Source: an uncultured bacterium
Lineage (GTDB): Bacteria; Bacillota; Clostridia; Peptostreptococcales; Anaerovoracaceae
Direction of reading: 5' to 3'
DNA length: 64,000 nucleotides
NCBI GenBank assembly: GCA_905214225.1
Contig: CAJMLL010000005.1
Location: forward strand, 1-64,000
Positions 7,205 to 58,263 of this stretch are shown here, one piece after another (within the stretch, counting starts at the first letter, position 1; every line of letters begins with the position of its first letter). Both the position numbers and the translations under genes were made by a program. A model generated the notes under the pieces. The model was not told the origin of the DNA, did no database searches, and worked only from the letters and a program-made list of their open reading frames with translations.

Positions 7205-8128
7205 ATGAAAGTAAGTACGATCTTGAAAATCATCTGCATCATCGGATTTATCTTTGACTTTATTCTCGTTGCTGCAAGCGTTCATAAAAAGCGCAGCACA
7301 GAGGAAGGAAGAAAATTGTTTGCACAACAGAAAAAATTCTTCCTGTGGAATGCCATGGTCGGCGTAGTAGCAAACTTCTTCGATACCCTGGGTGTCGGAT
7401 CCTTCGCTACATCCTCTGCTCTGTTCAAGATCAGAGGTTCCATTGATGACATCAACGTACCGGGAACACTGAACGTAGGAGATACATTCCCGGTCCTGAT
7501 GGAGGCCTTCCTCTTCTTCAGTCTCGTTGACTTGGACCCGCTGACACTGGTTTCCATGCTGGTCGCAGCAACCCTGGGATCCGCTCTCGGAGCAAACATC
7601 GTTACCAAATGGAATCGTACAACTGTACGTTACGCCATGGGTGTCGGACTTACTGTCCTGGGCATTATCATGGCCTGCAAAGTCACTAATGTCGGCCCGT
7701 TTGGTACGACAGGAACAGCTACCGCACTTCACGGTTCCAAGCTCATCATCGGAATCGTATGCAACTTCGTCCTGGGCGCTCTGATGAACGTCGGCGTTGG
7801 CCTCTACGCACCGTGCATGGCTCTGGTTGCACTGCTGGGCATGAACGTACAGGCTGCATTCCCGATTATGATGGGAAGCTGTGCATACCTGATGGCATTC
7901 GGAAATACTCCGGTATTCGTTAAGCAGTCCCGTTACGACATGATCGGTGTTATCACACAGGGAATCTTCGGATGCATCGGCGTATTCATCGCTTACACAT
8001 TCGTAAAGTCTCTGCCGATCAAGATTCTGACGATCCTGGTTGTATTCGTTGTATTCTTCACCGCAATCCTCTTCCTCAGAGACGGAATCAAGGACACCAA
8101 GGCGAAGAAAGCAGGAACAGCTGCATAA
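7205..8128 (+). CDS. TSUP (TauE/SafE-like) membrane permease next to the prd operon
   Basis: A 307-residue membrane protein with about eight hydrophobic helices in two similar halves. The segments NFFDTLGVGSFATSSALFK (first half) and GALMNVGVGLYAPCMALVALL (second half) are the repeated glycine-rich cores of the sulfite-exporter TauE/SafE family. Members move sulfite, sulfoacetate, thiosulfate and other small organic or sulfur anions. TAGGAGAGA is placed for the ATG at 7205, not for the ATG at 7145. It is convergent with the proline reductase genes and has its own strong promoter and leader. Import of proline, export of 5-aminovalerate or movement of a sulfur or selenium species are all possible; none is shown. 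Confidence 0.75.
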   Translation: MKVSTILKIICIIGFIFDFILVAASVHKKRSTEEGRKLFAQQKKFFLWNAMVGVVANFFDTLGVGSFATSSALFKIRGSIDDINVPGTLNVGDTFPVLMEAFLFFSLVDLDPLTLVSMLVAATLGSALGANIVTKWNRTTVRYAMGVGLTVLGIIMACKVTNVGPFGTTGTATALHGSKLIIGIVCNFVLGALMNVGVGLYAPCMALVALLGMNVQAAFPIMMGSCAYLMAFGNTPVFVKQSRYDMIGVITQGIFGCIGVFIAYTFVKSLPIKILTILVVFVVFFTAILFLRDGIKDTKAKKAGTAA

Positions 8129-43220: not shown

Positions 43221-44375
43221 TTAGTTTTCCGGCGCACAGGCGATATTTTCCGCCATCTGCGCGGCCCTCTCCCGGATGCCCGGACATTCCAGGATGCTCT
43301 TCGGGTCGTTGGCCGTTTCCAGCATGCAGAAATGCGGCGGAAGAATAAAATTCTTATTGCAGTTCATGGCTCCCATAACCTGTTCAGCGACGATGTCGCC
43401 GCCGCTGTATCCGGAAACCACCAGGGCGTAGACCTTTTTCTCCGAAAAGTCATATGCGCTGTAAAGCGCTGTCAGCCGGTTGAAGAAGGCGGCAATGTTC
43501 GCACTTACAGAGTCGTTATAGTTCGGGCAGACCAGCATGATGCTGTTACATTTCAGAAGAGCCGGATAAACCTGCTCCACCATGACACCGCCGTAAAAAC
43601 AGTCCGCCTTTTCACCGAAATGGCGGCAGGCTTCATAACTGCAGCCTCTGCAGTCGACAACGGCGCCATTCCGCAGAGAAATATCATGGGTCCTGACAGC
43701 AGGATTCTTCCGCGTCATCTCCTCTTTAATCATTTCCCAAAGGAGCAGGGTGTTCGAGGTCTTTCTGCTGCTGGCGTGAATCATCAGCACATCCGGCGCC
43801 TCCACTTCAGGCAGCCGGAAATCCTTCAGCTTCTGCACAAGAAATCTGGCGCCTCTCCGGAAGGCCTCCGGGATATCCACCTCCATCCGGTGCGCCATCG
43901 TCCTCCAGTTATACAGGGAACCGGTTCCCTCGCAGAGTGGTTTCCCCGGAAAGGCACATCCCGCGTCATTGGCGGCAAAAATAATGTCCCGTCCGGTCCT
44001 TTTGGTAAACAGTTCGCTTTCTCCGCAGATGAATACCGCACCGCTCCATCCGTCCATCAGATGCGGATGGGCATGCAGAAATCCATTTAATTCCAGCACC
44101 TGCATATTCCACCCAGACATAGGAAGTTCCGCGGCAAACAGAACCTTCAGCTCTCCCCTGCAGCCTTCCGCCTGCTCCTCATTTTTCTCCGCATCTGCTT
44201 CCTGCTCTTTCGCCAGGGAGGTTCCCTCCCTCTTCATCAGAAAATCCATAAACGATCTCCCGTTTCTGAATTCCCGGTATTCTTCCTCCTGAAGCGCATA
44301 ATCCAGCGTCTCCTGATACCGTTTCCGCAGTGCTCTGGACCCGTCCAGACTTTCCAGACGAATAACCGCCAGCAT
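43221..44375 (-). CDS. Flavodoxin-fold NAD(P)H-dependent oxidoreductase-like protein
   Basis: A 384-residue protein with two parts. Residues 1-190 are of no family I recognise (DPSRALRKRYQETLDYALQ-like helical start, FICGESELFTKRTGRDI). Residues about 195-384 form a flavodoxin-like FMN reductase domain: DVLMIHASSRKTSNTLLLWEMI is the phosphate loop, and MLVCPNYNDSVSANIAAFFNRLTALY is the isoalloxazine loop region. A CRGCSYEAC motif suggests a redox-active cysteine pair, as in iron-sulfur flavoproteins. AAGGAGAGG sets the start at 44375. It is the last gene in a series with a giant NMNAT-like fusion and an MDH-like protein. Confidence 0.72.
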   Translation of the reverse strand: MLAVIRLESLDGSRALRKRYQETLDYALQEEEYREFRNGRSFMDFLMKREGTSLAKEQEADAEKNEEQAEGCRGELKVLFAAELPMSGWNMQVLELNGFLHAHPHLMDGWSGAVFICGESELFTKRTGRDIIFAANDAGCAFPGKPLCEGTGSLYNWRTMAHRMEVDIPEAFRRGARFLVQKLKDFRLPEVEAPDVLMIHASSRKTSNTLLLWEMIKEEMTRKNPAVRTHDISLRNGAVVDCRGCSYEACRHFGEKADCFYGGVMVEQVYPALLKCNSIMLVCPNYNDSVSANIAAFFNRLTALYSAYDFSEKKVYALVVSGYSGGDIVAEQVMGAMNCNKNFILPPHFCMLETANDPKSILECPGIRERAAQMAENIACAPEN

Positions 44376-44497
44376 TCTTTCCCTCTCCTTTCTGCCACTT
44401 TTCTCTGCCGCGCAGACCGGAGGAAGCCCGGGCGTCTTTCCCAAAGCTCTGCGGTCTGTCTGCCGATAAAAGCAGCTCCGTTCTTTCCTGATTCTTT

Positions 44498-45598
44498 CTA
44501 TCTCTGCTGATTCTCCCGCAGCAGCGCAAGCCCCATATACGCGTTCTTCAGCCTGCTGTACAGTGCCTCCGGAACTTCCGGATCATCGATCTGCCATTCT
44601 GCGCCCTTCCGGAGACGGTTTTTCACCCCGAAGTAGGCGCCCTTTTCCCGGTTTCCGATATACACAGAACCGTAATGCCAGCGGCCCCGCACCGTCAGCA
44701 GGATCGACAGAGCCGCAGAAGAAAAGGCCGGCGCCAGAAAGGGCTTGAAGCCCAGGTCTCTGACTTCCAGATTGGCGTGAGCCGCCTTTTCCGTCAGCGC
44801 CCGGGACACCTCATCGTCGTAATCTTCCAGACTGTCCGCCAGCACCAGATCCTCTCCATGGGGTCCGTAAGCACGCCCCTCTGTCAGATAGCGCGCCCAG
44901 GCCGGATTTCTCTCCGCAAAATACATGCCTCTGGCATTCATGACGCCCAGGCCGTATCCCTGAATCTGCCCCGGCCGCAGATGCGACGCCTCCAGAAAGG
45001 CCCCGCAGAGCGGATCCACCGGATCTGAAACGACACAGACCAGGCCCTGATAATCCGCCTGATCCGCCAGGCCGGCAAAATGCCGGATCAGTCCCCGGTT
45101 CGCCTCCATCTGCGCCATCCGTACATCGCCTTTCTGCGATATGTCCGGAACGCCCCTGCTTGCACAGAAAATGAACACATCGCCGTTAAACAGCTCCTCT
45201 TCAGAGACCACGCGGATCTCCGGCATCTCCGGGGCGGTCCAGGCCGGAAGCCCGGCTTCCGGATCCCCTTCATCTTCAGAGAAAGGCCAGCGGATCTGAT
45301 TGACCTCGATTTCAAGTCTTTCGGTCTGTTTCTCATTCAGGTCGCAGATGCCGATCTCTGAGAAAACATCTCCCCCCAGAAGGCGCAGACCGAGGAGAAG
45401 ATTCGTTCCCACATCGCCTAACGCCAATATGCGTGCCTTCCGTCTTTCCGGCGGGTACAGACCTTTCTCCGCCCAGGAAGGTCCCGCAGAGCCTTCCGCC
45501 CGAACGCCGATTTCCTCCGCCAGACGGCGCACGCAGAGAGGCAGCTCCCCTCCGCGGCCGCCGGCAGATCTATGCTCTTGCTCCTTAATTTTTGTCAT
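44498..45598 (-). CDS. Divergent lactate/malate dehydrogenase-like NAD-binding protein
   Basis: A 366-residue protein with the fold of lactate and malate dehydrogenases. ARILALGDVGTNLLLGLRLLG (about residue 54) is the NAD-binding loop with D at the end of strand two (EIGICDLNEKQTERLEIEVNQI). VVSDPVDPLCGAF matches the VVSNPVD motif, YGLGVMNARGMYF matches the region of the substrate arginine, and GPHGEDLVL contains the catalytic histidine position. Overall similarity to true LDH or MDH is low, so substrate is not assigned. GGGAGAGTAAGG lies over the end of the upstream gene. A role with the fusion protein upstream is suggested only by operon position. Confidence 0.72.
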   Translation of the reverse strand: MTKIKEQEHRSAGGRGGELPLCVRRLAEEIGVRAEGSAGPSWAEKGLYPPERRKARILALGDVGTNLLLGLRLLGGDVFSEIGICDLNEKQTERLEIEVNQIRWPFSEDEGDPEAGLPAWTAPEMPEIRVVSEEELFNGDVFIFCASRGVPDISQKGDVRMAQMEANRGLIRHFAGLADQADYQGLVCVVSDPVDPLCGAFLEASHLRPGQIQGYGLGVMNARGMYFAERNPAWARYLTEGRAYGPHGEDLVLADSLEDYDDEVSRALTEKAAHANLEVRDLGFKPFLAPAFSSAALSILLTVRGRWHYGSVYIGNREKGAYFGVKNRLRKGAEWQIDDPEVPEALYSRLKNAYMGLALLRENQQR

Positions 45599-45600
45599 CC

Positions 45601-48600
45601 TTACTCTCCCCACTTCAGTCTGATGACGCGCTCGATGTCGTTCGTAATGAAGCTGGTCGGTCCGAGATTCTGATCGAACTTGACGCCCAGGTCTATGTCC
45701 GGCACACGCGGATAGGTCAGAACTTCACCGATACGGCTCAGGGTCATCTTACGCTCGTATGTCTTCTGATATTCCTCTTCCAGCACTGTCCAGATGTTCA
45801 GCGCATTCTCCAGGCAGACTCTGGAATACTCATAGCCCGTCTCAAAATCGCCGTTTCCGATGAACTGCGGCTTGATGTAAGGCAGGATCAGATTGACCGA
45901 TGGGTTTCTGCCCAGGCCCAGATATTCCTCCGTCACCTCGATGCTGTCGCCGCCGATAAACGGGTAGCAGTCCCGCTCATTCAGCCACAGACTCAGATTC
46001 GGCACAAAGTAGGCGCTCTCGGCCTTTACATTGCTCTGCGCCATCATATCCATGGCATTTCCGGTCATGACCGCAACCAGCACCTCGTGGATATCCACAC
46101 CGACCTTCCGCAGGATCGGCAGCAGATTGCGCATGCGGTGGCCCTTATGCAGCAGGTCGTCCACCAGAATCACCGGTTGATTGAAGGACTTGATCATCTT
46201 CGCCTGATTTTCCATCGAAGAGTAATTTCTGGCCTCGCGGATCTTGAAGCCCTTGACCGTACGGTTGAAATACTTATCCAGATTCAGTGACTTGGTGACC
46301 GTGTTCGGCACAACCACGTCGCCCAGCGTCTTCCCGAACGGCACCAGCATGTAAGGACCCTTCGGACTTCTGCCCTGGATCACCGATACACCGTTGATGT
46401 CCGCAACCTTCCGGATGATCTTATAATGCACGGCACTCGTGTTATAGGACAAAATCAACTCGCCAGGGTAAACCTTGGTAAGGACGCCGAGCAGGTTTCG
46501 GTGAGCCGTGTCGATGGCTTCCAGCACACGCGGATTCCGGTTGAACGGGTCCTTGATGACGGTTTCCACGTCACGGAAAATCACCTTTGGTTCATGCATG
46601 TCGACGGCGTAGATCGGCGAGTGGTTCGGCGGCGCGATATTGACAAAGCCCTGCTGGATCAGCAGTGCCTTGATTTCCTTGGTCAGGCCCGCAGGATCCA
46701 CAGGATCGTAAACCGCGTAGGTGAAGTCGCGCTCAATCAGCGCGGACAGGATTTCTGTCAGCACCATCTGTCCCACGTTGGAAATCTCCCCTTGGTCTTT
46801 TGCGAACAGAAAACCGATGACAGCGATGTTTCCGCCTGCTTCTTTACGGATATGGGCGGAAATCTGCGAATCCTTGAATTCATCCAGAAGTTCTCTGGTG
46901 CCGATGCGGTGCGCGGCGGCGTAGGCGGCCATTTCCCGCCGTTCGCCTCCGGCGGCCTCAATGTACAGGGAGCGGACCCGGTCATCTTCCAGATATTTCT
47001 CCAGCTTCTGCTCATCGTAGCCCATCTGCTGAAGCTCGTCCATAATCGGCCAGATGCTCTCCACGCCTCTGGACTTGAAGGATCCCATGCCGATTTCTCT
47101 TGCTTCCAGCACATGTTTATAAGCTGGCTCTCTCAGGTAGAGGCCCTTGTCGTAGATGAAGTTCTGCGCAACCGGGTCGATCAGGTTGGAGATGTCTCTG
47201 TGCATGTCGACATTCTCGCGGATCCTGCTGGAACTGATATCTTCATAGAACTTATCCAGCTTCAGGTGAATGACCTCTCCCTGGATTTTCTTTTCGTTCT
47301 CGTTCTCCATCTCTTCACTCTGCGGATTCTCATCGGTTTCACGCTCGAAGGCAATATGATTGATGGTGTGAATGCTGTCCGGCTCCGGATCTTTTCTGTA
47401 GGCAGACGCGTTGCGGATGACATCGGTTCCGACGGCAATGTACAGTTCCTTGTCTCTGAAGAGCTTCTTCAGGACGTACAGATCGTCCGGATTGGCGATG
47501 TTGACGGAAATATCGTCCGGGAAGGGATAAATTCCCTCTTCATCGGCGACGGACATGTTCATGATCCTGCGGCGCAGAAGGCGCGGCTGGGTGTGCTTGG
47601 ACCAGGAGAATTCATCGATGGCCAGGTAGACATCGAATCCCATATCACGGATCTGGCAGGCAACCGCCTTGTGCCCAAGGCTGAACGGGTCAAAGGTTCC
47701 CGGATAGAAGGCGACTTTCTTATGCTTCTTAAATTTAAACGGGGTCTTTCCCAGCTCCTTATAGGACAGATAGCGGTAGATATGGTTCAGTACCGCAGAA
47801 TCACTGTAGAAGTCCAGAAGCTCGCCCTCGTCCTCCATCAGCAGGCAGAGGAGTTTTCTCGCTCCGTGGGTAAAGAGCTGATCCCGTTCCTTTTCTCCCA
47901 TGTTCGGTCCGGCAAAAATATATTTTCCGATGCAGCGGAAGGCCTCGCGGCTCAGTCCTCTGTCATAGTGCGCATATCCTCTGAGCAGGATTCCCAGAAG
48001 CCGGCGTCTGCGCGCGTCATGTTCCTTTTCTGTTCCGCCCGCGTGTGCGGCGAACTCTTCATAATGATCCAGAACGACACCGACGGTATCCATAATCGAC
48101 TTTGCGACCGCCGTGCTTTCCTCAACGGCACTCTGCTCCAGCATTTCGATCATCTCATCGAATTCCTTTTCCGGAAGCAGGATCGCCGTCCGTCCGAGAT
48201 ATTCCGGGACATAGGTCGCAAACTGGCGGTCTCCGATATCCAGACCGTTGTACAGCTCAATCGCAAGTTCGTTCACCTGCGAAGACGGCATCTTCCGGAT
48301 AACCGACAGCAGCGCATTTCCTGCCGCCTGACGCACCGCCGCCCGTTCGCTGACCTTCAGCAGGTTGACCAGATGGGTTCCGATATGCAGAAAGGCTCCG
48401 TTCCGGTCGTTATTCCTGAGGGCAAATTCCCGCATCAGTTCAATGTTTGCTACTTTTACGCCCCAGTGGACGCCCATTTTCAGGTCATCCAGGAAGAGCC
48501 GGCTCTCTGCTTCCGCAAATTCTTCATCTGATTCCGGAAGCTCCATAATTTTCAGAAGCTTCTTCCAGTAAGATGCATTGTCCATATCTTTAAACAGATG

Positions 48601-50376
48601 CTGCTGGGCTTCCAGGGCAAAAACTCTCAGCTGGCGGTTCTCGGAACGGGATGCCTCGCGGATGAAGGCGCCTGCCTGCGCAAGAAATTCCCTGCTGCAG
48701 TCTCTTTTGTCCAGAACCAGCAGGGCCTGGAGCAGGTTGACCCGGACTTCATCACTGTAATCCTCACTGGCATAATAAGGAAGGATCTCCTCCAGAAAAT
48801 CGCCCTTCTGTTTCTCTGTGCAGCCGCTCATCAGGCCCTCGATAAAAGCCCGGAGGCTGCTGCCTACCCACAGCTTGTGCTGATCGGTGAAACGCAGGTC
48901 CGGACGGATGATCATTTCCAGATACTGATTGAGGAGGGTGAGGTTGGTAATTTCCTTGCCCGGGAGGACAACGCCCTTCGGGAGCTCCTTCGTGTACAGT
49001 TCATTATAATTGGCAACGATTCTGCCCATCAGTCTCGCGGACTGGGTGCGGATATCCTCTTCTCGGTGGAAGAGAAGCTCATAGAGGAAGTTCAGGGTCA
49101 GCAGCTCCTGGTGCTCCGACATGTAAGTGGAGTACTCCTCCATGATATTAATGTAGGTCCTGACATTTTCCCAGTTCTGCTCACTTCTGGCCGCCTCGAT
49201 CAGGCTGGTGAACTTCGCATCATCATAGAAAATGCTCATCATCCGGATATTGTGACTGAATGCGCTGAATTTGAACTGACGGATAACCTCCCGTCCCTCC
49301 AGCATGGCGGCCTCTCTGTGCATCGGAACCGGGTTTCCCTCCGGCTGATAGGCGTACATCGGATCCAGCACAGTTCTGACGCCCAGCGCATGCATATAGT
49401 CCTCAAAATCCGCCAGTTTCGCGTAAACCTTGCGGTATCTCTGTTCCTTCGCAGCGTCCACATTATCCAGTTTATTCAGAATAACATCGAAGGATTCCTT
49501 CAGGCTGTAGAAGTGAACCACTTCCTTTCCATCATCGCCCCGCGTGCTCTTTACGCGGAAGTCCGAATAGATCAGAAGCAGGGATTCGATCGACAAATTT
49601 TCAAGTTCAAGATCCCAGACGGAATGATTCGCTGCGATATGTCCGATGGATTCCAGACCGAATTTCCTGTAGCAGATGTCCGTATAATAGTAGTGCAGAT
49701 ATGGGACACGCTTTTCATCATCGCCCCGGCAGCCGTATTTTCCGATATCGTGGCCCGCTGCGGCTCCGGAAATCAGGCCCAGATCCACCGGTTCGCCGAC
49801 AGCGGCAAGCTGATAGGCCATGTACATGGCAACCCAGTGAACGCCGCCGATGTGTGCCAGGGCGTCAAACGGTGTGATCTCGGAATGGATACGCATCATT
49901 TCATAAATGTAGTATTCTTTTGCGACCTGCAGCATCTTGACATAGTCCTGCGTATAGCCGTTTTTCTTTACGTTTTTCAGCGAAAGAACGTGAAAGTCAA
50001 AATGCGGATCGAACCGCAGATATTTTCTTTCCATGTGGAACTGGCTGCGCAGAACATTCAGCAGAAAGAGGATGCCGGTTTTCTTTTCTTCCAGATTTTC
50101 CGGTTCCGGCTCACCCGGAAAGATACCGGACAGCACGTACTGCACCGCATCTTCCAGCCACTGTTTCTCTGAATATCCCTGCATGCAGCTGATTCCGCAC
50201 GCTGCAATATGCCGCATCGTCCGAAGGCAGGAAAATCTGCCGTGAGAATCTGCGGATGACGCCAGACGGGACGCCAGATTGCGCATCGGTATATCCAGAA
50301 TACTGATGTGCGCAAGCTCCATATTGCTCTGTATCGTCTGTTCCATCTCAATCGATGTATATCCATTCCACTTCAT
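45601..50376 (-). CDS. Giant fusion: HD + HEAT-like + NMNAT-type nucleotidyltransferase + GNAT-like + phosphoribosyltransferase
   Basis: A 1,591-residue cytoplasmic protein. Residues about 170-330 form an HD hydrolase domain (AHIGGVH, AAGHDIGKYG with His209-Asp210, HIAANH, IYSDF). Residues about 380-880 are helical pairs resembling HEAT repeats. Residues 888-1082 are a nucleotidyltransferase of the NMNAT/cytidylyltransferase type (VAFYPGTFDPFSLGHKA at 888-904, AVGTDVIRN, SSSRIREN). Residues about 1095-1265 look like a GNAT acetyltransferase (IAVIGFLFAKDQGEISNVGQM). Residues about 1300-1460 are a type I phosphoribosyltransferase (PVILVDDLLHKGHR at 1401-1414 is the PRPP loop). AGGAG precedes the ATG. 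It follows the sdaAA gene and is translated into an MDH-like gene. A role in NAD or other nucleotide metabolism is likely from the domains, but the exact reaction is unknown. Confidence 0.85.
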   Translation of the reverse strand: MKWNGYTSIEMEQTIQSNMELAHISILDIPMRNLASRLASSADSHGRFSCLRTMRHIAACGISCMQGYSEKQWLEDAVQYVLSGIFPGEPEPENLEEKKTGILFLLNVLRSQFHMERKYLRFDPHFDFHVLSLKNVKKNGYTQDYVKMLQVAKEYYIYEMMRIHSEITPFDALAHIGGVHWVAMYMAYQLAAVGEPVDLGLISGAAAGHDIGKYGCRGDDEKRVPYLHYYYTDICYRKFGLESIGHIAANHSVWDLELENLSIESLLLIYSDFRVKSTRGDDGKEVVHFYSLKESFDVILNKLDNVDAAKEQRYRKVYAKLADFEDYMHALGVRTVLDPMYAYQPEGNPVPMHREAAMLEGREVIRQFKFSAFSHNIRMMSIFYDDAKFTSLIEAARSEQNWENVRTYINIMEEYSTYMSEHQELLTLNFLYELLFHREEDIRTQSARLMGRIVANYNELYTKELPKGVVLPGKEITNLTLLNQYLEMIIRPDLRFTDQHKLWVGSSLRAFIEGLMSGCTEKQKGDFLEEILPYYASEDYSDEVRVNLLQALLVLDKRDCSREFLAQAGAFIREASRSENRQLRVFALEAQQHLFKDMDNASYWKKLLKIMELPESDEEFAEAESRLFLDDLKMGVHWGVKVANIELMREFALRNNDRNGAFLHIGTHLVNLLKVSERAAVRQAAGNALLSVIRKMPSSQVNELAIELYNGLDIGDRQFATYVPEYLGRTAILLPEKEFDEMIEMLEQSAVEESTAVAKSIMDTVGVVLDHYEEFAAHAGGTEKEHDARRRRLLGILLRGYAHYDRGLSREAFRCIGKYIFAGPNMGEKERDQLFTHGARKLLCLLMEDEGELLDFYSDSAVLNHIYRYLSYKELGKTPFKFKKHKKVAFYPGTFDPFSLGHKAVACQIRDMGFDVYLAIDEFSWSKHTQPRLLRRRIMNMSVADEEGIYPFPDDISVNIANPDDLYVLKKLFRDKELYIAVGTDVIRNASAYRKDPEPDSIHTINHIAFERETDENPQSEEMENENEKKIQGEVIHLKLDKFYEDISSSRIRENVDMHRDISNLIDPVAQNFIYDKGLYLREPAYKHVLEAREIGMGSFKSRGVESIWPIMDELQQMGYDEQKLEKYLEDDRVRSLYIEAAGGERREMAAYAAAHRIGTRELLDEFKDSQISAHIRKEAGGNIAVIGFLFAKDQGEISNVGQMVLTEILSALIERDFTYAVYDPVDPAGLTKEIKALLIQQGFVNIAPPNHSPIYAVDMHEPKVIFRDVETVIKDPFNRNPRVLEAIDTAHRNLLGVLTKVYPGELILSYNTSAVHYKIIRKVADINGVSVIQGRSPKGPYMLVPFGKTLGDVVVPNTVTKSLNLDKYFNRTVKGFKIREARNYSSMENQAKMIKSFNQPVILVDDLLHKGHRMRNLLPILRKVGVDIHEVLVAVMTGNAMDMMAQSNVKAESAYFVPNLSLWLNERDCYPFIGGDSIEVTEEYLGLGRNPSVNLILPYIKPQFIGNGDFETGYEYSRVCLENALNIWTVLEEEYQKTYERKMTLSRIGEVLTYPRVPDIDLGVKFDQNLGPTSFITNDIERVIRLKWGE

Positions 50377-50394: not shown

Positions 50395-51270
50395 TTAGGA
50401 TTTAAAAATACACTGTGAACATTCCAGTCCGGCTTCCGTTACCGCGCATCCGCCGAGCGCGGTCTCTCTCAGCGCCGCCGGCAGTCTTCTTCCCACGTCG
50501 TACATTGTGTCAATCATCTGATCCAGCGGAATCAGCTGCTTATTTCCCGCAAGCGCGATCTCCGCCGCCACCAGAGCATTCGCGGCTCCGGAAGCATTGC
50601 GGTTCTGGCAGGGATATTCCACCAGTCCGGCGACCGGATCGCAGACAAGGCCCAGCATATTCATCAGCACGGTAGACGCCGCGTCTTCACACTGCTCCGG
50701 TGATCCGCCTTCAAGCTCTGTTACAGCCGAAGCCGCCATCGCGGCAGCAATTCCGATCTCCGCCTGACATCCGCCCACGGCTCCTGCAACGGTTGCATTT
50801 CTCATGGCCAGATAGCCGATGGCTCCCGCATTGAACAGTGCCTGTACCATTTTCTCATCAGAGACCTTCTTCTCTTCCTGATAAGCCAGGAAAACTCCCG
50901 GCACTACGCCGGAAGATCCGGCCGTCGGAGCGGCAACGATCAGTCCCATCGAAGCGTTGACTTCCAGTACGCCCATGGAATAAGCCGCTGCGCGGTTCAT
51001 GATCCCGGGAAAAATGCTTTTTCCGTTTTCCGCCAGTTTATGGAGTCTGCTGCTCTCTCCCCCAATGATTCCGCCCATGGTTTTCACTGGTTTTTCGATC
51101 GCACGCCGGGCTGAATCTTTCATAATCTGATAGACCTCCGTCATTCTCTGCGTGATTTCCGCATCGTCCGCACCGGTAAGGTCGTGTTCTCTTCTCTTCA
51201 TTGCCTCAGAAATCGTCAGATTGTTCTCTTCACAGACCTGAAGCAGTTCTTTCGCATTCTTAAAGTCCAT
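50395..51270 (-). CDS. sdaAA: L-serine dehydratase, iron-sulfur dependent, alpha subunit
   Basis: A 291-residue catalytic subunit of the two-subunit serine dehydratase that turns L-serine into pyruvate and ammonia with a [4Fe-4S] cluster. The cluster region is visible as QCEDAASTVLMNMLGLVCD and GLVEYPCQNRNASGAANA, with three cysteines in the expected order; MGLIVAAPTAGSSGVVPGVF is the substrate-binding region. GGAGG sets the start. It lies 10 bp after sdaAB and 18 bp before the giant fusion gene. Confidence 0.95.
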   Translation of the reverse strand: MDFKNAKELLQVCEENNLTISEAMKRREHDLTGADDAEITQRMTEVYQIMKDSARRAIEKPVKTMGGIIGGESSRLHKLAENGKSIFPGIMNRAAAYSMGVLEVNASMGLIVAAPTAGSSGVVPGVFLAYQEEKKVSDEKMVQALFNAGAIGYLAMRNATVAGAVGGCQAEIGIAAAMAASAVTELEGGSPEQCEDAASTVLMNMLGLVCDPVAGLVEYPCQNRNASGAANALVAAEIALAGNKQLIPLDQMIDTMYDVGRRLPAALRETALGGCAVTEAGLECSQCIFKS

Positions 51271-51280
51271 TCTTTACCTC

Positions 51281-51949
51281 CTATGGTTCGACAATCATGA
51301 CGTCTTTTACATTCTCATTTTTCAGAATTTCATCCCGAACACTCATTGGAACGTGTTCATCCGATTCTACGATTGTATAGGCCGTCTCATGCTTGGATTC
51401 TCTGAACAGTCTCATGAATGCGATATTTACGCCCAGATCACTGAGGCATTTGGTAATATGCGCCACAACCCCCGGATAATCTTTCTGGATTACGATCACC
51501 GTACTGTACTCTCCGGTAAAATCAACGTCCACGCCGTTGATCTTTACGATGCGCACCTTTCCGCCTCCGATAGATTCCCCCCGGATCGTCATGACGCGTC
51601 CGGATACACCGGTCATCTTGATATCCGCCGTGTTCGGATAGATATCTTCAAGCTTGTCATTCGGAATAAAGCTGTACTTCAGACCGCGCTCATCAGCGAT
51701 TTTAAAGGAATCCCGGATTCTCTCGTCATCGGTATTAAAGCCCATGACGCCTCCCAGAAGCGCGCGGTCCGTACCGTGACCGCGATAGGTTTTTGCAAAC
51801 GATCCGTACAGGGTAAATTCCACTTCCTTCAGCGGCTCACCCATCATTTTCTGAGCCAGAAACGCAATCGAATCCGCACCCGCCGTATGTGAGCTGGACG
51901 GTCCGATCATATTCGGTCCCAGCACGTCAAACACACTGATTAATGACAT
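51281..51949 (-). CDS. sdaAB: L-serine dehydratase, iron-sulfur dependent, beta subunit
   Basis: A 222-residue partner subunit. The N-terminal domain has SVFDVLGPNMIGPSSSHTAGA, the conserved motif of iron-sulfur serine dehydratases, and the C-terminal part is an ACT domain (STVIVIQKDYPGVVAHITKCLSDLGVNIAFMRLFR), a likely regulatory fold. AAAGAGG precedes the ATG. It is first in a series with sdaAA. Confidence 0.95.
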   Translation of the reverse strand: MSLISVFDVLGPNMIGPSSSHTAGADSIAFLAQKMMGEPLKEVEFTLYGSFAKTYRGHGTDRALLGGVMGFNTDDERIRDSFKIADERGLKYSFIPNDKLEDIYPNTADIKMTGVSGRVMTIRGESIGGGKVRIVKINGVDVDFTGEYSTVIVIQKDYPGVVAHITKCLSDLGVNIAFMRLFRESKHETAYTIVESDEHVPMSVRDEILKNENVKDVMIVEP

Positions 51950-52203: not shown

Positions 52204-53592
52204 TTACTTGCTCTGGATGTATTTGTCGATTCCTGCAGCAGCAACTTTTCCGGCTCCCATGGCCTTGATTACTGTAGCTGCTCCGGTTACTGCATCTCCG
52301 CCGGCGAAGATTCCCGGATGGGAAGTCATTCCGTTCTCGTCGACATCAATTCCGCCCTTCTTGGTCGGTGTGATGTTGCTTGTCGTGTCGCGGATCAGAG
52401 AGTTTACTCTGGTTCCCAGAGACATGATGACGTAGTCGCAGTCGATGACAAACTCAGATCCTTCAATAGGAACTGGTCTTCTTCTTCCGGATGCATCCGG
52501 CTCACCGAGCTCCATCTTGATGCACTTGATTCCGCATACGTTTCCGTTCTCATCGCCCAGGATCTCAATCGGGTTGGTCAGGAAGTGGAAATCAATTCCT
52601 TCTGCCTTTGCGTGCTCGAACTCTTCTGCTCTTGCCGGAACTTCCTTCTCGGAACGACGGTATACCAGCTTGACCTCTGCGCCCATTCTCTTTGCGCAGC
52701 GGGAAGCATCCATAGCAACGTTTCCTGCTCCGACGATAACAACGTGCTTCGGACGTGCGATCGGTGTGTCATAATCATCGCGGTAAGCCTTCATCAGGTT
52801 GATTCTGGTCAGATACTCATTCGCGGATACAACACCGACAAGGGACTCACCCGGAATATTCATGAACATCGGCAGACCTGCTCCTGTACCTACGAATACA
52901 GCCTCAAAGCCTTCCTCATCCATCAGCTCTTCAACGGTGATTGCCTTTCCGACAATCGCGTCGGTAACAAAGTTAACGCCCTTGGCAGCAAGCTTGTCAA
53001 CTTCTGTCTGTACGATTTCCTTCGGCAGACGGAACTGAGGGATTCCGTAAACCAGAACTCCGCCGATCTTATGCAGAGACTCGAAAACGGTAACTTCATA
53101 TCCCTTATTTACCAGGTCTCCTGCAGCCGTCAGTCCTGCCGGGCCGCCTCCGACAACGGCAACCTTATGGCCGTTGGAAGGAACTTTATCGATTTTCTCA
53201 TCGCCGTGATGAGCTTCATGCCAGTCTGCTGTGAATCTCTCCAGACGTCCGATTCCAACAGGCTCGCCCTTGATTCCTCTTACGCACTTGCTCTCGCACT
53301 GGTTCTCCTGCGGGCATACACGGCCGCAGACTGCAGGCAGAGAGTTTGTCAGTGTGATTTCTTCATATGCACCTTCATAATCCTTGTTTACAATCTTCGC
53401 GATGAAATTAGGAATATGAACGTTTACCGGACATCCGTCCACGCAAGGATGGTTCTTACAGTTCAGGCATCTCTGCGCTTCATCCAGTGCCATTTCTTCT
53501 GTATATCCAAGAGCAACCTCTTCGAAATTCTTATTCCGGACGTTTGGCTCCTGTTCCGGCATCGGATTCTTATCAGCTCTCATATTAGGCAT
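52204..53592 (-). CDS. nfnB: NfnB-type subunit (GltA-like FAD and Fe-S oxidoreductase)
   Basis: A 462-residue protein of the glutamate-synthase small subunit family. With the gene upstream it forms NfnAB, which couples NADH and reduced ferredoxin to NADP+ reduction by electron bifurcation. It has an N-terminal double [4Fe-4S] region (CLNCKNHPCVDGCP, CGRVCPQENQCESKC), then two nucleotide folds (KVAVVGGGPAGLTAAGDL for FAD; HVVIVGAGNVAMDASRCAKRMG for NADPH), and AGGDAVTGAATVIKAMGAG at the end. The start is ATG 53592, overlapping the nfnA stop by 8 bp. The gene could be read as a glutamate synthase subunit, but no large subunit is nearby and the nfnA partner decides the call. Confidence 0.88.
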   Translation of the reverse strand: MPNMRADKNPMPEQEPNVRNKNFEEVALGYTEEMALDEAQRCLNCKNHPCVDGCPVNVHIPNFIAKIVNKDYEGAYEEITLTNSLPAVCGRVCPQENQCESKCVRGIKGEPVGIGRLERFTADWHEAHHGDEKIDKVPSNGHKVAVVGGGPAGLTAAGDLVNKGYEVTVFESLHKIGGVLVYGIPQFRLPKEIVQTEVDKLAAKGVNFVTDAIVGKAITVEELMDEEGFEAVFVGTGAGLPMFMNIPGESLVGVVSANEYLTRINLMKAYRDDYDTPIARPKHVVIVGAGNVAMDASRCAKRMGAEVKLVYRRSEKEVPARAEEFEHAKAEGIDFHFLTNPIEILGDENGNVCGIKCIKMELGEPDASGRRRPVPIEGSEFVIDCDYVIMSLGTRVNSLIRDTTSNITPTKKGGIDVDENGMTSHPGIFAGGDAVTGAATVIKAMGAGKVAAAGIDKYIQSK

Positions 53593-54439
53593 TCTGACGT
53601 ACACCTCCAATCAGCTTGCAGACATGCTGTCTGTCATGTGCTTCCTCTTCTGCGAATGTTTTACCTCTCTTGATCAGCAGATCCCAGTCAATCTTGGCAC
53701 CGTCGAAGTCCGGTCCGTCTACGCAGACGAATCTGCTCTCGCCGTCAACGATGCAGCGGCAGCCGCCGCACATACCAGTTCCATCGACCATGTAGGTTGC
53801 CAGAGATGCAACAGAAGGAATTCCGTAGTCTTTTGCAATTCCGCATACGAACTTCATCATAACAGCCGGACCGACTGCAACGATCTCATCGTATTTCTCA
53901 CCGGCGTCCAGAAGAGCCTTCAGCTTATCTGTTGTGAAGCCCTTTTCACCATAGGTTCCATCATCCGTAACCATATGTACTTCATCGACACCTGCACGGA
54001 ACTCATCCTCAAGGATAACGATATCCTTTGTCTTGAATCCGCAGATCATGGTAACATGAATGCCATGCTTATGCATTCCGATTGCAAGCGGATAAGCCAG
54101 AGCGTTTCCTACTCCTCCGCCGACAATGCAGACTCTCTTCAGGCCGTCCATCTTAGAAGGCTGACCAAGAGGTCCTACAACATCTGCCAGACAGTCACCG
54201 ACCTGGAGCTGCTCCAGCAGCATAGTCGTTCTTCCAACTGTCTGAACGATGATATCAATTGTGCCTTCCTTCTCATCATGTCCCGCCATGGTCAGTGGAA
54301 TTCTCTCTCCGTGCTCATCTACACGAAGAATGATGAACTGTCCTGGTTTCGCGTGTCTGGCGATCAGCGGCGCATAAATCGTATACCAGTTGATGGTATC
54401 GTTCAGCTGCCTTTTTTTAATAATTTCAAACCTTTTCAC
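53585..54439 (-). CDS. nfnA: NfnA-type subunit (PyrK/SudB-like FAD and [2Fe-2S] protein)
   Basis: A 284-residue ferredoxin-NADP reductase-like protein. The FAD fold (IILRVDEHGERIPLTMAG) is followed by the NAD(H)-binding fold (VCIVGGGVGNALAYPLAIGMHKHG) and a C-terminal [2Fe-2S] site CGGCRCIVDGESRFVCVDGP. The start is GTG after TAGGAGG. The order nfnA then nfnB with overlapping ends is that of clostridial NADH-dependent ferredoxin:NADP+ oxidoreductases. Related proteins act with dihydroorotate dehydrogenase or sulfide dehydrogenase, but those partners are absent here. Confidence 0.88.
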   Translation of the reverse strand: MKRFEIIKKRQLNDTINWYTIYAPLIARHAKPGQFIILRVDEHGERIPLTMAGHDEKEGTIDIIVQTVGRTTMLLEQLQVGDCLADVVGPLGQPSKMDGLKRVCIVGGGVGNALAYPLAIGMHKHGIHVTMICGFKTKDIVILEDEFRAGVDEVHMVTDDGTYGEKGFTTDKLKALLDAGEKYDEIVAVGPAVMMKFVCGIAKDYGIPSVASLATYMVDGTGMCGGCRCIVDGESRFVCVDGPDFDGAKIDWDLLIKRGKTFAEEEAHDRQHVCKLIGGVRQNA

Positions 54440-54729: not shown

Positions 54730-57700
54730 CTACTTGGAAGCCTTTGCAGTCAGCTCTTCATAACGAGCCTTTGCGTCAGCCTCAGCCTTGTCAAACAGCT
54801 TCTCTGCTCTCTCCGGGAACTTCAGAGTCAGGGAGTTGTAACGAACCTCTCCCATGATGAAGTCTCTGTAGCTCTCTGTCGGAGCCTTGGAATCAACTGT
54901 CAGGCCGTTCTTTCCTTCTGCAACCAGTTCAGGGTTGAATCTGAGCAGATCCCAGTAACCGGACTTAACAGCTGCCTTAGCCTCTTCCTGAGCCTTAGCC
55001 ATTCCTCTCTTGATACCATGGTTGATGCATGGGGAGTAAGCAATGATCAGGGAAGGACCATCGTAAGCTTCAGCTTCCTTGATAGCCTTTACTGTCTGAT
55101 TCATGTCAGCACCCATAGCAATCTGTGCTACATAAACGTAGCCATACTGCATCATGATCTGAGCCATGTCCTTCTTCTTAACTGCCTTACCAGCAGCAGC
55201 GAACTGTGCAACAGCTCCCATTGGTGTGGACTTGGAGGACTGTCCGCCTGTGTTGGAGTAAACCTCAGTATCGAATACGAAGATGTTTACGTTCTTGCCG
55301 GAAGCGAGGACGTGGTCAACTCCGCCGTAACCGATATCATAGGACCAGCCGTCTCCGCCGAAGATCCACATGGACGGCTTTCTCAGCATGTCTGCGTTGT
55401 CAACGATGAACTTGGCATCCGGATCGTCGAGCTTAGCGCAGTCAGCAGCAAATGCCTCGCCAGTTGCCTTGGAAGCATCTCCGTCGTTGAATGTGTCGAG
55501 CCAAGCCTTAGCAGAAGGAACCTTGTCAGCCAGTCTCTCAGCAGCGTGCTTGCACTCTGTTCTTCTAGCCTCAACAGCTACTTCCATACCAAATCCGAAC
55601 TCAGCGTTATCCTCGAACAGGGAGTTGCCCCATGCAGGACCGTGACCCTCTTCATTTACTGTGTACGGTGTGGACGGTGCAGAGTTACCCCAAATGGAGG
55701 AGCATCCTGTAGCGTTTGCAATGTACATTCTGTCTCCGAACAGCTGTGTGATCAGCTTAGCATATGGAGACTCTCCGCATCCCGGGCAAGCTCCGGAGAA
55801 CTCGAGGAGCGGCTGCTCGAACTGGGAACCCTTTACAGAGTACTTGTTGAACGGCAGATCCTTCTTGGATACGTTCTTGAATGCATAGTCGAACTTCTTC
55901 TGGTTGTTTGCAACGACTTCATCGTCAGCCTGAGTCATTGTCAGAGCCTTAGCCGGGCAAACCTGAGCGCAGGATCCGCATCCTGTGCAGTCCAGAGCGG
56001 AAATTGCGATTGTGAACTGCAGGTCGTCAACGCCCTTGCCGTTCAGCTTCTTGGCATCTCCGTTCAGAGGCTCAGCTTCCTTAGCTGTCAGTGCGAACGG
56101 TCTGATTACACCGTGCGGGCAGACGAAGGAGCACTGGTTGCACTCGATACATTTAGCAACATCCCAAACCGGAACATCAGCAGCGATTCCACGCTTCTCA
56201 TAAGCAGCTGTACCAGCCGGCTCAGATCCGTCCTGAGTATCCATGAATGCGGATACCGGAATGCTGTCTCCGTCCATAGCACCCATCGGAGCGACGATGT
56301 CGTTCAGGAATGCTGTCATCTTATCATCACGTCCAACAAGCTTAGCCGGAGCCGGATCATCCTTAGCGTCAGCCCAGGAAGCCGGAACCTCAACCTTATG
56401 AACGTTCTTGATTCCTTCTTCAACTGCTGCGCAGTTCATGTTAACGATCTTCTCACCCTTACGTCCGTAAGTCTTCTTGATCGCGTCCTTCATGAACTTC
56501 TCTGCATCGTCGATCGGAATAATGTTAGCGATCTTGAAGAATGCAGCCTGCAGTACAGAGTTTGTTCTTCTTGCGCCCAGACCAACCTTCTTAGCGATGT
56601 CTACAGCGTCGCATGTGTAGAAGTTGATGTTGTGCTGAGCCAGATATCTCTTAACCTTTCCTGGCAGGTGCTCTTCCAGCTCCTGATCATTCCATACGCA
56701 GTTCAGCAGGAAGGAACCACCGTCAACGACATCCTCAACCATGTTGTACTTTGTGAGGTATGCACTGTTATGACATGCTACGAAGTCAGCCTGCTTTACA
56801 TAGTATGTGGACTTGATCGGCTTGTCTCCGAAACGCAGGTGGGAAATTGTAACACCACCGGACTTCTTGGAGTCATACTGGAAGTAAGCCTGTACCTTCT
56901 TATCTGTGTGGTCTCCGATGATCTTTACGGAGTTCTTGTTAGCTCCTACAGTACCATCAGAACCAAGTCCCCAGAACTTACATGCAACTGTTCCTTCCGG
57001 AGCTGTGTTTGGATAGTGGCTCGGTGTGAGGGACAGATGTGTAACATCATCGTTGATGGACAGTGTGAACTCTTTCTTCGGCTCAGCAGCTGCCATGTTC
57101 TCGTAAACAGCAAGGATGTCTCCCGGCTGAACGTCCTTGGAACCAAGTCCGTAACGGCCTCTTGTGATCTCGCAGTTTGCAAACTCTGTTCCGTTCAGAG
57201 CAGCTACGACATCCAGGTACAGCGGCTCACCGACTGTTCCAGGCTCTTTTGTTCTGTCGAGAACAGCGATCTTCTTAACGCTCTTCGGCATAACTGCTGT
57301 CAGATACTTAGCGGAGAACGGTCTGTACAGATGAACCTCAACGATACCAACCTTCTCGCCCTTAGCCAGCATATGGTCGATCAGCTCTTCAGCAGCTTCA
57401 CATACGGAACCCATAGCTACGATAACGCGGTCAGCATCCGGAGCACCATAGTAGTTGAACGGCTTGTAGTCTGTGCCGATCTTCTCATTGATCATCTCCA
57501 TGTACTTGTTGAAGATGTCCGGTGTCTCGTTGTAGCTTGTGTTAGCTGCCTCACTGTGCTGGAAGAATGCTTCCGGCTGCTCAGCAGATCCGATTGTGTG
57601 CGGATGGTTAGGATTCAAAGCGTGATCCTTGAATGCCTTAACTGCATCCCAGTTAACCATGTCTTTCAGAGTGTCATAGTCCCAAACATGAATCTTCTGA

Positions 57701-58263
57701 TACTCATGAGATGTTCTGAATCCATCGAAGAAATGCAGGGTTGGCAGATGTCCGTCAATTGTTGCCAGATGAGCAACTGCAGCCAGGTCCATTACCTGCT
57801 GAACACTGTTGGATGCCAGCATAGCGAATCCTGTCTGACGTGTTGCCATAACGTCGGAATGATCTCCGAAAATAGAAAGCGCGTGAGTAGATACGGCTCT
57901 TGCAGCTACGTGGAATACTGCAGGAACCTGCTCAGCAGCGATCTTGAACATGTTCGGAACCATCAGCAGCAGTCCCTGAGATGCAGTGAATGTTGTGGTG
58001 TAAGCACCAGCAGACATAGCACCGTGTACAGCACCTGCAGCTCCGGCCTCGGATTCCATCTCTACGATGTTTACCGGCTCACCGAAAATGTTCTTTCTTC
58101 CCTGAGCTCCCCAGTTATCCATGTTCTCAGCCATTGGTGAGGACGGTGTGATTGGGTAGATGGCAGCGACTTCTGAGAACGCAAATGCTACATGAGCGGC
58201 AGCAGCGTTACCATCCATTGTCTTCAGCTGTCTGTTATCAGCTGATACATGCTTGTTGTCCAT
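54730..58263 (-). CDS. nifJ: Pyruvate:ferredoxin oxidoreductase, single-chain
   Basis: A 1,177-residue enzyme that converts pyruvate and CoA to acetyl-CoA, CO2 and reduced ferredoxin. All fused domains are present: the pyrimidine domain at the N-terminus (YPITPSSPMAENMD), transketolase C-like domain, the gamma domain (about 420-610, GLGSDGTVGANKNSVKIIG), a two-cluster ferredoxin domain (CIECNQCSFVCPHG, CTGCGSCAQVCP, about 690-770) and the TPP domain (CPGCGESPYAKLITQLFG, ATGCSSIWG, GGDGWSYDIGYGG). AAAGGAG precedes the ATG. Codons look strongly biased, consistent with high expression. It is a single-gene unit with a near-consensus promoter flanked by twin 16-bp repeats. Confidence 0.97.
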   Translation of the reverse strand: MDNKHVSADNRQLKTMDGNAAAAHVAFAFSEVAAIYPITPSSPMAENMDNWGAQGRKNIFGEPVNIVEMESEAGAAGAVHGAMSAGAYTTTFTASQGLLLMVPNMFKIAAEQVPAVFHVAARAVSTHALSIFGDHSDVMATRQTGFAMLASNSVQQVMDLAAVAHLATIDGHLPTLHFFDGFRTSHEYQKIHVWDYDTLKDMVNWDAVKAFKDHALNPNHPHTIGSAEQPEAFFQHSEAANTSYNETPDIFNKYMEMINEKIGTDYKPFNYYGAPDADRVIVAMGSVCEAAEELIDHMLAKGEKVGIVEVHLYRPFSAKYLTAVMPKSVKKIAVLDRTKEPGTVGEPLYLDVVAALNGTEFANCEITRGRYGLGSKDVQPGDILAVYENMAAAEPKKEFTLSINDDVTHLSLTPSHYPNTAPEGTVACKFWGLGSDGTVGANKNSVKIIGDHTDKKVQAYFQYDSKKSGGVTISHLRFGDKPIKSTYYVKQADFVACHNSAYLTKYNMVEDVVDGGSFLLNCVWNDQELEEHLPGKVKRYLAQHNINFYTCDAVDIAKKVGLGARRTNSVLQAAFFKIANIIPIDDAEKFMKDAIKKTYGRKGEKIVNMNCAAVEEGIKNVHKVEVPASWADAKDDPAPAKLVGRDDKMTAFLNDIVAPMGAMDGDSIPVSAFMDTQDGSEPAGTAAYEKRGIAADVPVWDVAKCIECNQCSFVCPHGVIRPFALTAKEAEPLNGDAKKLNGKGVDDLQFTIAISALDCTGCGSCAQVCPAKALTMTQADDEVVANNQKKFDYAFKNVSKKDLPFNKYSVKGSQFEQPLLEFSGACPGCGESPYAKLITQLFGDRMYIANATGCSSIWGNSAPSTPYTVNEEGHGPAWGNSLFEDNAEFGFGMEVAVEARRTECKHAAERLADKVPSAKAWLDTFNDGDASKATGEAFAADCAKLDDPDAKFIVDNADMLRKPSMWIFGGDGWSYDIGYGGVDHVLASGKNVNIFVFDTEVYSNTGGQSSKSTPMGAVAQFAAAGKAVKKKDMAQIMMQYGYVYVAQIAMGADMNQTVKAIKEAEAYDGPSLIIAYSPCINHGIKRGMAKAQEEAKAAVKSGYWDLLRFNPELVAEGKNGLTVDSKAPTESYRDFIMGEVRYNSLTLKFPERAEKLFDKAEADAKARYEELTAKASK

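What the first reader, a model, noticed from the sequence alone, without database searches (positions are those of the whole stretch)
45601..50376. 1,591-residue fusion of HD hydrolase, HEAT-like repeats, NMNAT-type transferase, GNAT-like and phosphoribosyltransferase domains
Motifs for at least three nucleotide-handling activities are seen in one chain: HD (His209-Asp210), FYPGTFDPFSLGH (residues 890-902) and PRPP loop ILVDDLLHKGHR (1403-1413). PRTase plus nucleotidyltransferase is the core chemistry of NAD-type cofactor synthesis, and the HD and GNAT parts could act on the product or on protein. I know of no described function for this architecture. It might be a one-protein pathway for salvage or synthesis of an unusual nucleotide, or a sensor.
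Basis: partly seen in the sequence, partly recalled or inferred. Interest (0 to 1): 0.75.

Follow-up and report, generated by a model that had tools for sequence, protein, structure and literature searches.

The report
Giant nucleotide enzyme with redox partners
A very large bacterial protein that joins several nucleotide-handling enzyme parts in one chain is nearly always found with the same two redox-type proteins in anaerobic bacteria, which points to an undescribed pathway, perhaps one that makes or repairs an unusual nucleotide cofactor.

Summary
Profiles and two AlphaFold models (pLDDT 88.5) support HD, HEAT solenoid, NadD-like NMNAT, GNAT-fold and type I PRTase-fold segments. HD ligands and NMNAT catalytic residues are invariant in 30 diverse members. 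The NMNAT acceptor side is rewritten, the PRTase phosphate loop is altered, and 18 of 20 GNAT segments hold no acetyl-CoA motif.

Downstream lie an LDH/MDH-fold protein and a four-cysteine FMN_red protein. The order giant, LDH-like, FMN_red holds in 25 of 29 testable loci. In 299 phylum genomes the same 6 carry all three; in 41 genomes (G001 and relatives) the same 18 do. This is a tightly linked three-gene system of anaerobic Firmicutes with no described counterpart found.

It does not replace the cell's NAD or hypoxanthine enzyme: NadD and HGPRT match over cut-off in 41 of 41.

Best reading: a scaffolded enzyme that makes and adenylylates a non-nicotinate nucleotide, with two redox partners making or using it. 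Function is inferred only; confidence 0.35.

The parts
45601..50376 (-). Giant protein, 1591 aa (N-terminal helical region, HD, HEAT solenoid, NMNAT, GNAT fold, PRTase fold)
   Evidence: ORF and translation; family; models
49372..49959 (-). HD metal-dependent phosphohydrolase domain, residues 140-335; H175, H209, D210, H251, D272 in 30 of 30 members, H180 in 28
   Evidence: profiles and motif; fold not tested by structure search
47749..49293 (-). HEAT-like alpha solenoid, about residues 362-876
   Evidence: helices in model; importin/PP2A-A-like matches; HEAT profile in 15 of 30 members
47134..47721 (-). NadD-like nucleotidyltransferase (NMNAT) domain, residues 886-1081, with an own acceptor-side signature DEFSWSK / NIAN / GxDV....AS.Y
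46501..47085 (-). GNAT-fold segment, about residues 1098-1292, without a conserved CoA-loop motif
   Evidence: Foldseek rows 7ciu, 4ua3, 1tiq, 5hh1 (placement inferred); alignment and motif count
45757..46524 (-). Type I PRTase-fold segment, about residues 1285-1540; PRPP-type loop ILVDDLLHKGHR 1403-1414
   Evidence: (uracil PRTase 6wn8; placement inferred)
44498..45613 (-). Partner 1: 371-aa LDH/MDH-fold protein; as listed, its frame starts 13 nt inside the end of the giant gene (true start codon not determined)
   Evidence: gene order
43221..44444 (-). Partner 2: 407-aa FMN_red protein with an extra N-terminal domain and four Cys (265, 268, 273, 282) invariant in 15 of 15 members
   Evidence: gene order
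50395..51270 (-). L-serine dehydratase alpha subunit gene, 18 nt upstream of the giant gene; probably co-transcribed in this lineage, not a constant part
51281..51949 (-). L-serine dehydratase beta subunit gene

Best explanation
A three-protein pathway of anaerobes that makes, or regenerates, a nucleotide-based small molecule other than NAD. Inferred steps: the PRTase-fold domain forms or binds a mononucleotide; the NMNAT domain adenylylates it with ATP, the base stacking on invariant Tyr993, giving a dinucleotide; the HD domain hydrolyses a phosphate ester of the product or of a wrong dinucleotide, as HD protein YqeK is paired with NadD in Firmicutes (recalled); the HEAT solenoid and GNAT-fold domain hold the active sites together. 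The LDH-fold and FMN/four-Cys partners supply the redox step on the base, or are the enzymes that use the product. Shown here: domain assignments, conservation of HD and NMNAT catalytic residues, gene order, co-occurrence, presence of separate NadD and HGPRT. Inferred: substrates, direction, product, role of the partners.
For: HD and NMNAT segments have the highest share of invariant positions (37 of 196 and 34 of 206; PRTase 19 of 216, HEAT 29 of 545, GNAT 5 of 187, C-tail 3 of 91, N-terminus 0 of 139; 30 members), as working active sites would. The NMNAT domain keeps G893, D896, H902, S1048, S1049 and R1053 in 30 of 30. Its acceptor side differs from canonical NadDs: DEFSWSK in 24 of 24 giants and 0 of 16 NadDs; P-H/F-K in 1 of 24 and 16 of 16; S/G/T-Y-T in 0 of 24 and 16 of 16. 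The giant NMNAT domains form one clade, 24 of 24, support 0.85, on a long branch. Two partners with NAD- and FMN-binding-type folds accompany it: 25 of 29 testable loci in order; the same 6 of 299 and the same 18 of 41 genomes. Pairwise distances of the three proteins correlate (r 0.81, 0.90, 0.83; 24 loci, L057 left out). NadD and HGPRT matches over cut-off in 41 of 41.
Against: No substrate, product or phenotype is known. The PRTase 5'-phosphate loop is rewritten, the domain scores below Pfam's cut-off in the window protein, and two members depart further (L060 SDEVINRGRT, L059 DDMLHTADR), so it may only bind a ligand. In partner 1 the catalytic Asp168 position is Met in 16 of 16, so ordinary 2-hydroxyacid dehydrogenation is doubtful. 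Four testable loci lack the partners beside the giant (L048, L061, L083, L085); for L083 and L085 it was not tested whether partners lie elsewhere. The arrangement of the domains in space was not examined. Distance correlation also follows from vertical descent, and the co-occurrence odds treat related genomes as independent.
Confidence: 0.35

Rival explanations
1. Nucleotide/redox sensor and regulator: NMNAT- and PRTase-fold domains bind NAD(P)-, ATP- or PRPP-type ligands, the HEAT solenoid moves, and the HD domain is the output, cutting a nucleotide signal; the LDH-fold and FMN proteins report redox state.
For: Large solenoid between HD and NMNAT domains; altered PRTase loop and lost LDH Asp position fit ligand binding; upstream neighbours include amino-acid catabolism and regulator genes in some lineages (serine dehydratase in 3 of 31 loci; sigma-54 activator directly upstream in L042 and, by clustering, L044 and L045).
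Against: NMNAT catalytic residues (H902, S1048, S1049, R1053) are invariant in 30 of 30, more than needed for binding alone; no known signalling domain was found.
Confidence: 0.22
2. Maturation or modification machine for a macromolecule (RNA or a redox enzyme): the solenoid holds the target, NMNAT/GNAT-type domains modify it, the partners reduce it. NMNAT-superfamily members that work on carboxylates, CitC (with a GNAT domain) and TmcAL, are precedents (recalled).
For: HEAT solenoid of about 500 residues with importin-, PP2A-A- and spliceosome-type matches; GNAT-type match in the same model; DPF(S/T)xxH resembles CitC's NPFTxGH (recalled, not tested).
Against: TIGR00482 (NadD) matches 30 of 30 members (best 1.5e-14), and the alignment runs over the whole model in the window protein and in 19 giants; an aromatic (Tyr993, 30 of 30) sits at the base-stacking Trp position; no RNA-binding domain appeared in the profile scans; CoA motif absent in 18 of 20 GNAT segments.
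Confidence: 0.15
3. It is this lineage's NAD biosynthesis or purine salvage enzyme in fused form.
For: Some NCBI and JGI records call it nicotinate-nucleotide or nicotinic acid mononucleotide adenylyltransferase. In carrier G033 the separate NadD match holds one in-frame stop.
Against: NadD over cut-off in 41 of 41 genomes including all 18 carriers; giant NMNAT domains score 34-56 bits against a cut-off of 112; HGPRT over cut-off in 41 of 41; NadA in 11 of 18 carriers and 8 of 23 others, so no replacement of de novo NAD synthesis.
Confidence: 0.04
4. Part of a Ter-type (tellurite/stress) nucleoside-metabolite system.
For: In L061 the giant lies beside TerD x3, TelA, YceG_bac and C-C_Bond_Lyase genes. 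Ter systems are said to include nucleobase PRTases (passage in PMC7824862).
Against: Ter genes are in the fetched flanks of 1 of 31 loci only; five relatives of L061 at 68-82% identity (L083-L087, short flanks in L086 and L087) show none; in the L061 genome the two partners sit together on another contig.
Confidence: 0.03
5. Anti-phage defence system.
For: Patchy distribution (6 of 299); multidomain nucleotide enzymes occur in defence (recalled).
Against: PADLOC gave one chance-level match (partner 2, E 0.03) and none for the other two; no tblastn match in 50,697 phage records; partners are metabolic redox folds.
Confidence: 0.04

Closest known systems
NadD, nicotinate-nucleotide adenylyltransferase (TIGR00482)
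   Different: First His of HxGH is Ser/Thr; P-H/F-K, S/G/T-Y-T and the stacking Trp are replaced by DEFSWSK, NIAN and Tyr; 34-56 bits against a cut-off of 112
NadD-HD fusion NF005519 (NadD-YqeK type; identity as such recalled)
   Same: HD and NMNAT activities brought together
   Different: NF005519 matches only the NMNAT part (residues 886-1093, profile 1-197 of 361); here the HD comes first, a solenoid lies between, GNAT and PRTase parts are added, and a canonical NadD coexists
Type I PRTases (HGPRT, archaeal HPT, APRT)
   Same: PRPP-type loop with acidic pair; a PRTase among the Foldseek rows (6wn8)
   Different: 5'-phosphate loop mostly H/N-K-G-Y-R; in the window protein scores far below cut-offs (15-20 bits)
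L-lactate/malate dehydrogenase family (partner 1)
   Same: Rossmann-type match; R109, R171 and H195 equivalents kept (R165, R228, H252; 16 of 16; LDH numbering recalled)
   Different: Asp168 equivalent is Met225 and Asn140 equivalent is Asp197 in 16 of 16; the window protein is below the Pfam and NCBIfam cut-offs
NADPH-dependent FMN reductase / iron-sulfur flavoprotein (partner 2)
   Same: FMN_red domain E 1.2e-15, Cys cluster
   Different: Extra N-terminal domain, C-x2-C-x4-C-x8-C spacing in the window protein, no NCBIfam match in 15 members at E<=0.01, no PDB sequence matching its profile at E<=1e-3

Membership tests
NadD (TIGR00482) | Score over the curated cut-off (112.45 bits) | tested here: not met
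   30.2 bits for the window protein; giants in carriers 34-56 bits
NadD (TIGR00482) | HxGH, FDP and ISSxxIR nucleotidyltransferase motifs | tested here: inconclusive
   D896, second His H902, S1048, S1049 and R1053 in 30 of 30; first His is Ser (20) or Thr (10), as in T-x-G-H members of the superfamily (recalled)
NadD (TIGR00482) | Nicotinate-side motifs (P-H/F-K, S/G/T-Y-T, GxD...W) as in NadDs of the same genomes | tested here: not met
   24 giants against 16 NadDs, one of them a fragment; 2 of 18 NadDs sought (L003, L071) were not picked up by the script
HD phosphohydrolase superfamily | H...HD...D metal ligands | tested here: met
   H175, H209-D210, D272 in 30 of 30; Pfam HD in 12 of 30 members at E<=0.1, best 3.3e-5
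Type I phosphoribosyltransferase | PRPP motif with acidic pair followed by T/D-T-G-x-T (recalled) | tested here: inconclusive
   acidic pair in 30 of 30 (second Asp is Glu once); loop mostly H/N-K-G-Y-R; Pfam cut-off not reached in the window protein
GNAT acetyltransferase | R/Q-x-x-G-x-G/A CoA loop (recalled) | tested here: not met
   18 of 20 segments have it nowhere; in the other two it occurs at unrelated, unconserved places
L-lactate/malate dehydrogenase (partner 1) | Catalytic Asp168-His195 pair (recalled) | tested here: not met
   His kept (H252), Asp position is Met225 in 16 of 16
Ter-associated nucleoside system | Neighbourhood of TerD/TelA/YceG genes | tested here: not met
   1 of 31 loci, within the fetched flanks
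PADLOC defence families | Profile match | tested here: not met
   none for the giant or partner 1; one E 0.03 match for partner 2
All of the above | Enzyme activity and substrate | not testable with these tools
   needs protein and mass spectrometry

The most novel reading that the evidence does not exclude
The operon makes and uses an undescribed NAD-like dinucleotide cofactor of anaerobic Firmicutes: the PRTase joins a non-nicotinate base to ribose phosphate, the NMNAT domain adds AMP, and the LDH-fold and FMN/four-Cys partners are the redox enzymes that build or use that cofactor.
Probability: 0.15. Interest if true: 0.93.

Novelty: categorically new. Interest (0 to 1): 0.66.

Why it matters
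A roughly 1,600-residue protein with 7817 matching sequence clusters (120 of them seen) in anaerobes such as Megasphaera, Emergencia, Hornefia, Clostridium aceticum and Alkaliphilus is labelled, where it has a name, as a phosphohydrolase, a cytidyltransferase or a plain NAD enzyme; the last is contradicted here. A tight three-gene linkage makes the question testable: three proteins, one operon, one missing metabolite. If the product is a new dinucleotide it would add a redox cofactor to biochemistry; if it is a sensor it would show how these organisms couple nucleotide pools to their fermentations.

Tried and rejected
Rejected: plain NAD synthesis; replacement of quinolinate synthesis (NadA 11 of 18 carriers, 8 of 23 others, p 0.12); purine salvage replacement; Ter system; defence; phage or plasmid gene: no phage match, and the only match in the plasmid collection is a 2.6 Mb Acetoanaerobium noterae record labelled as a plasmid but of chromosome size.

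Weak lead not pressed: 2-hydroxyacyl-CoA dehydratase family PF06050 is in 17 of 18 carriers and 10 of 23 others (p 7e-4), but carriers have larger genomes (mean 2.9 against 1.9 Mb), so this may be size alone. Closeness of the HD domain to 'oxetanocin-like' HD proteins (1xx7, E 0.017) is too weak to use.

Led nowhere: six paper searches for the architecture or a NAD-like cofactor. Three found no paper; the others listed 2, 1 and 10, of which only PMC7824862 was looked into, by passages around five terms (12 of 15 places shown): no such protein in them. The 2012 Ter paper is not held. The first-pass ORF picker lost partner 2 in L001, L044 and L045 to shadow ORFs (inspected); tblastn corrected the count. 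The VIA-align lists were filled by one domain of each model, so no VIA row tests the GNAT, PRTase or HD parts.

Caveats on counts: L044/L045 and L053/L054 are near-identical pairs (97% and 96%); L057's giant is split over two frames; L052 and L086 end at contig ends and were left out of the 29; L089 held no giant and was left out of the 31. G010 gave a lone 100-residue partner-2 fragment with a stop, not counted as a carrier. The 41 and the 299 genomes both include G001. That searches drew the same 299 genomes is taken from the handles listed (26 of 299). E-value limits were 1e-20 (giant) and 1e-15 (partners). In some searches only 7990-7999 candidates were scored and 120 listed. The structure alignments held the window fragment and 76 of the 240 relatives then listed. 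The tree is one FastTree run without model testing and includes a truncated NadD.

Full report
What is there. The reported coordinates hold one open frame of 1,591 codons on the minus strand, window 50376 down to 45601. GC by codon position is 0.58/0.33/0.68, as in a translated gene. Relatives are abundant: 7817 proteins at E<=1e-3 among 7996 scored candidates, the 120 listed at 48-100% identity and mostly full length. A search from a distant member listed Alkaliphilus, Caloramator, Clostridium aceticum, Clostridium formicaceticum, Peptoclostridium acidaminophilum, Natronincola, Tepidibacter, Crassaminicella and Geosporobacter; another listed Peptococcus simiae, Sinanaerobacter, Anaerotignum and Chakrabartyella. 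Where sources give a name it is mostly 'phosphohydrolase', 'cytidyltransferase', 'nicotinate-nucleotide adenylyltransferase' or 'hypothetical protein'.

What is kept and what is changed. In 30 diverse members the share of invariant positions is 37 of 196 in HD, 34 of 206 in NMNAT, 19 of 216 in PRTase, 29 of 545 in HEAT, 5 of 187 in GNAT, 3 of 91 in the C-tail and 0 of 139 in the N-terminal part. The NMNAT catalytic side is kept (G893, D896, H902, S1048, S1049, R1053, all 30 of 30), while the acceptor side differs from canonical NadDs taken from carrier genomes: DEFSWSK is in 24 of 24 giants and 0 of 16 NadDs; P-H/F-K in 1 of 24 and 16 of 16; S/G/T-Y-T in 0 of 24 and 16 of 16. The stacking Trp position of NadD (role recalled) is Tyr993 in 30 of 30. 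The PRTase loop keeps its acidic pair, but the phosphate-binding part is mostly H/N-K-G-Y-R, and L059 and L060 depart further. The protein therefore looks like an adenylyltransferase for another mononucleotide beside a PRTase-fold domain whose activity is uncertain.

Partners. Downstream on the same strand lie a 371-aa LDH/MDH-fold protein, whose frame as listed starts 13 nt inside the giant gene, and a 407-aa FMN_red protein. By tblastn on 31 loci with a giant, the order giant, LDH-like, FMN_red holds in 25; L048, L061, L083 and L085 lack it, and L052 and L086 cannot be tested because the contig ends. In a sample of 299 genomes of the phylum the giant is in 6, partner 1 in 6 and partner 2 in 6, the same six (chance 1e-12 if genomes were independent). 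In 41 genomes, G001 and relatives, it is the same 18 for all three, plus a partner-2 fragment in G010. In G338 (L061) the giant is separated from its partners, yet both exist, together, on another contig; in G008 (L052) they are likewise on another contig; L048 is a second giant copy in G035, whose other copy has the partners. For L083 and L085 the rest of the genome was not searched. Partner 1 keeps the LDH arginines and the catalytic His but has Met at the Asp168 position and Asp at the Asn140 position, 16 of 16 (LDH numbering recalled). Partner 2 has four Cys invariant in 15 of 15 and an extra N-terminal domain; no NCBIfam model matches any of 15 members at E<=0.01, and no PDB sequence matches its profile at E<=1e-3. 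Distances between loci correlate across the three proteins (r 0.81, 0.90, 0.83 in 24 loci, L057 left out), as co-inheritance predicts, though vertical descent alone gives this too.

Not the housekeeping enzymes. NadD over its cut-off is in 41 of 41 genomes (in carrier G033 that match holds one in-frame stop), HGPRT in 41 of 41, NadA in 11 of 18 carriers and 8 of 23 others. Giant NMNAT domains form a clade of 24 of 24 apart from NadDs (support 0.85).

Context. Beyond the three genes the neighbourhood varies. L-serine dehydratase genes lie directly upstream in the window, L001 and the distant L062 (34% identity), 3 of 31 loci. A sigma-54 activator gene lies 14-17 nt upstream in L042, L044 and L045 (identified by Pfam in L042, the others by clustering). 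An M18 aminopeptidase gene lies 87 nt upstream in L060. This hints at amino-acid fermentation but proves nothing. One giant (L061) sits by a Ter operon; its five nearest relatives examined do not.

Reading. I commit to a pathway enzyme that makes or repairs a non-nicotinate adenine dinucleotide or related nucleotide, with two redox partners, at 0.35. The sensor reading is at 0.22 and the macromolecule-modification reading at 0.15. Conservation, linkage and the presence of separate NadD and HGPRT are shown; the folds are supported to the degrees given; substrate, product and the partners' roles are inferred.

Novelty. Each fold is known. As a whole, the architecture and the three-gene linkage matched no entry in the Pfam, NCBIfam, PADLOC and PDB searches made, and six full-text searches of the held open-licence library found no description (one listed paper was looked into by passages, the other listed ones judged by title and abstract start). 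Subscription papers were not searchable, so an earlier mention is possible.

Noticed in passing
L061:982-7398: A Firmicute Ter operon (three TerD genes, TelA, YceG_bac, C-C_Bond_Lyase) lies beside a giant gene that lacks its two partners nearby; the partners are on another contig of that genome.
   Followed up: yes
L048:7489-12372 and L058:7676-12592: One genome (G035) has two giant genes but a single partner pair, next to the second copy; the first copy follows an APH-like kinase gene and precedes OB-fold and HD-domain genes.
   Followed up: partly
L057:7596-12529: The giant is split over two frames, with the PRTase half in a separate ORF; sequencing error or real split not decided.
   Followed up: no
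window 52204-54439 (-): Genes for a Fer4_20/pyridine nucleotide-disulphide oxidoreductase and a DHODB-type Fe-S/FAD protein lie upstream of the serine dehydratase genes; they look like an NfnAB-type pair (name recalled).
   Followed up: partly
window 54730-58263 (-): 1,177-aa ORF that by eye reads as pyruvate:ferredoxin oxidoreductase, in line with an anaerobe (recalled, no profile run).
   Followed up: no
L042:5489-7567, and L044, L045 upstream of the giant: Sigma-54 activator (Pfam in L042) whose N-terminal part looks by eye like an amino-acid dehydrogenase (Kdd-like, recalled), directly upstream of the giant operon.
   Followed up: partly
G010:C7:11815-12105: Lone fragment of partner 2 (about 100 residues, one stop) in a genome without the giant: possible relic of a lost operon or contamination.
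   Followed up: no
G033:C4:54864-55448: The separate NadD match of this carrier genome holds one in-frame TGA: sequencing error, or a decaying NadD in a carrier.
   Followed up: no
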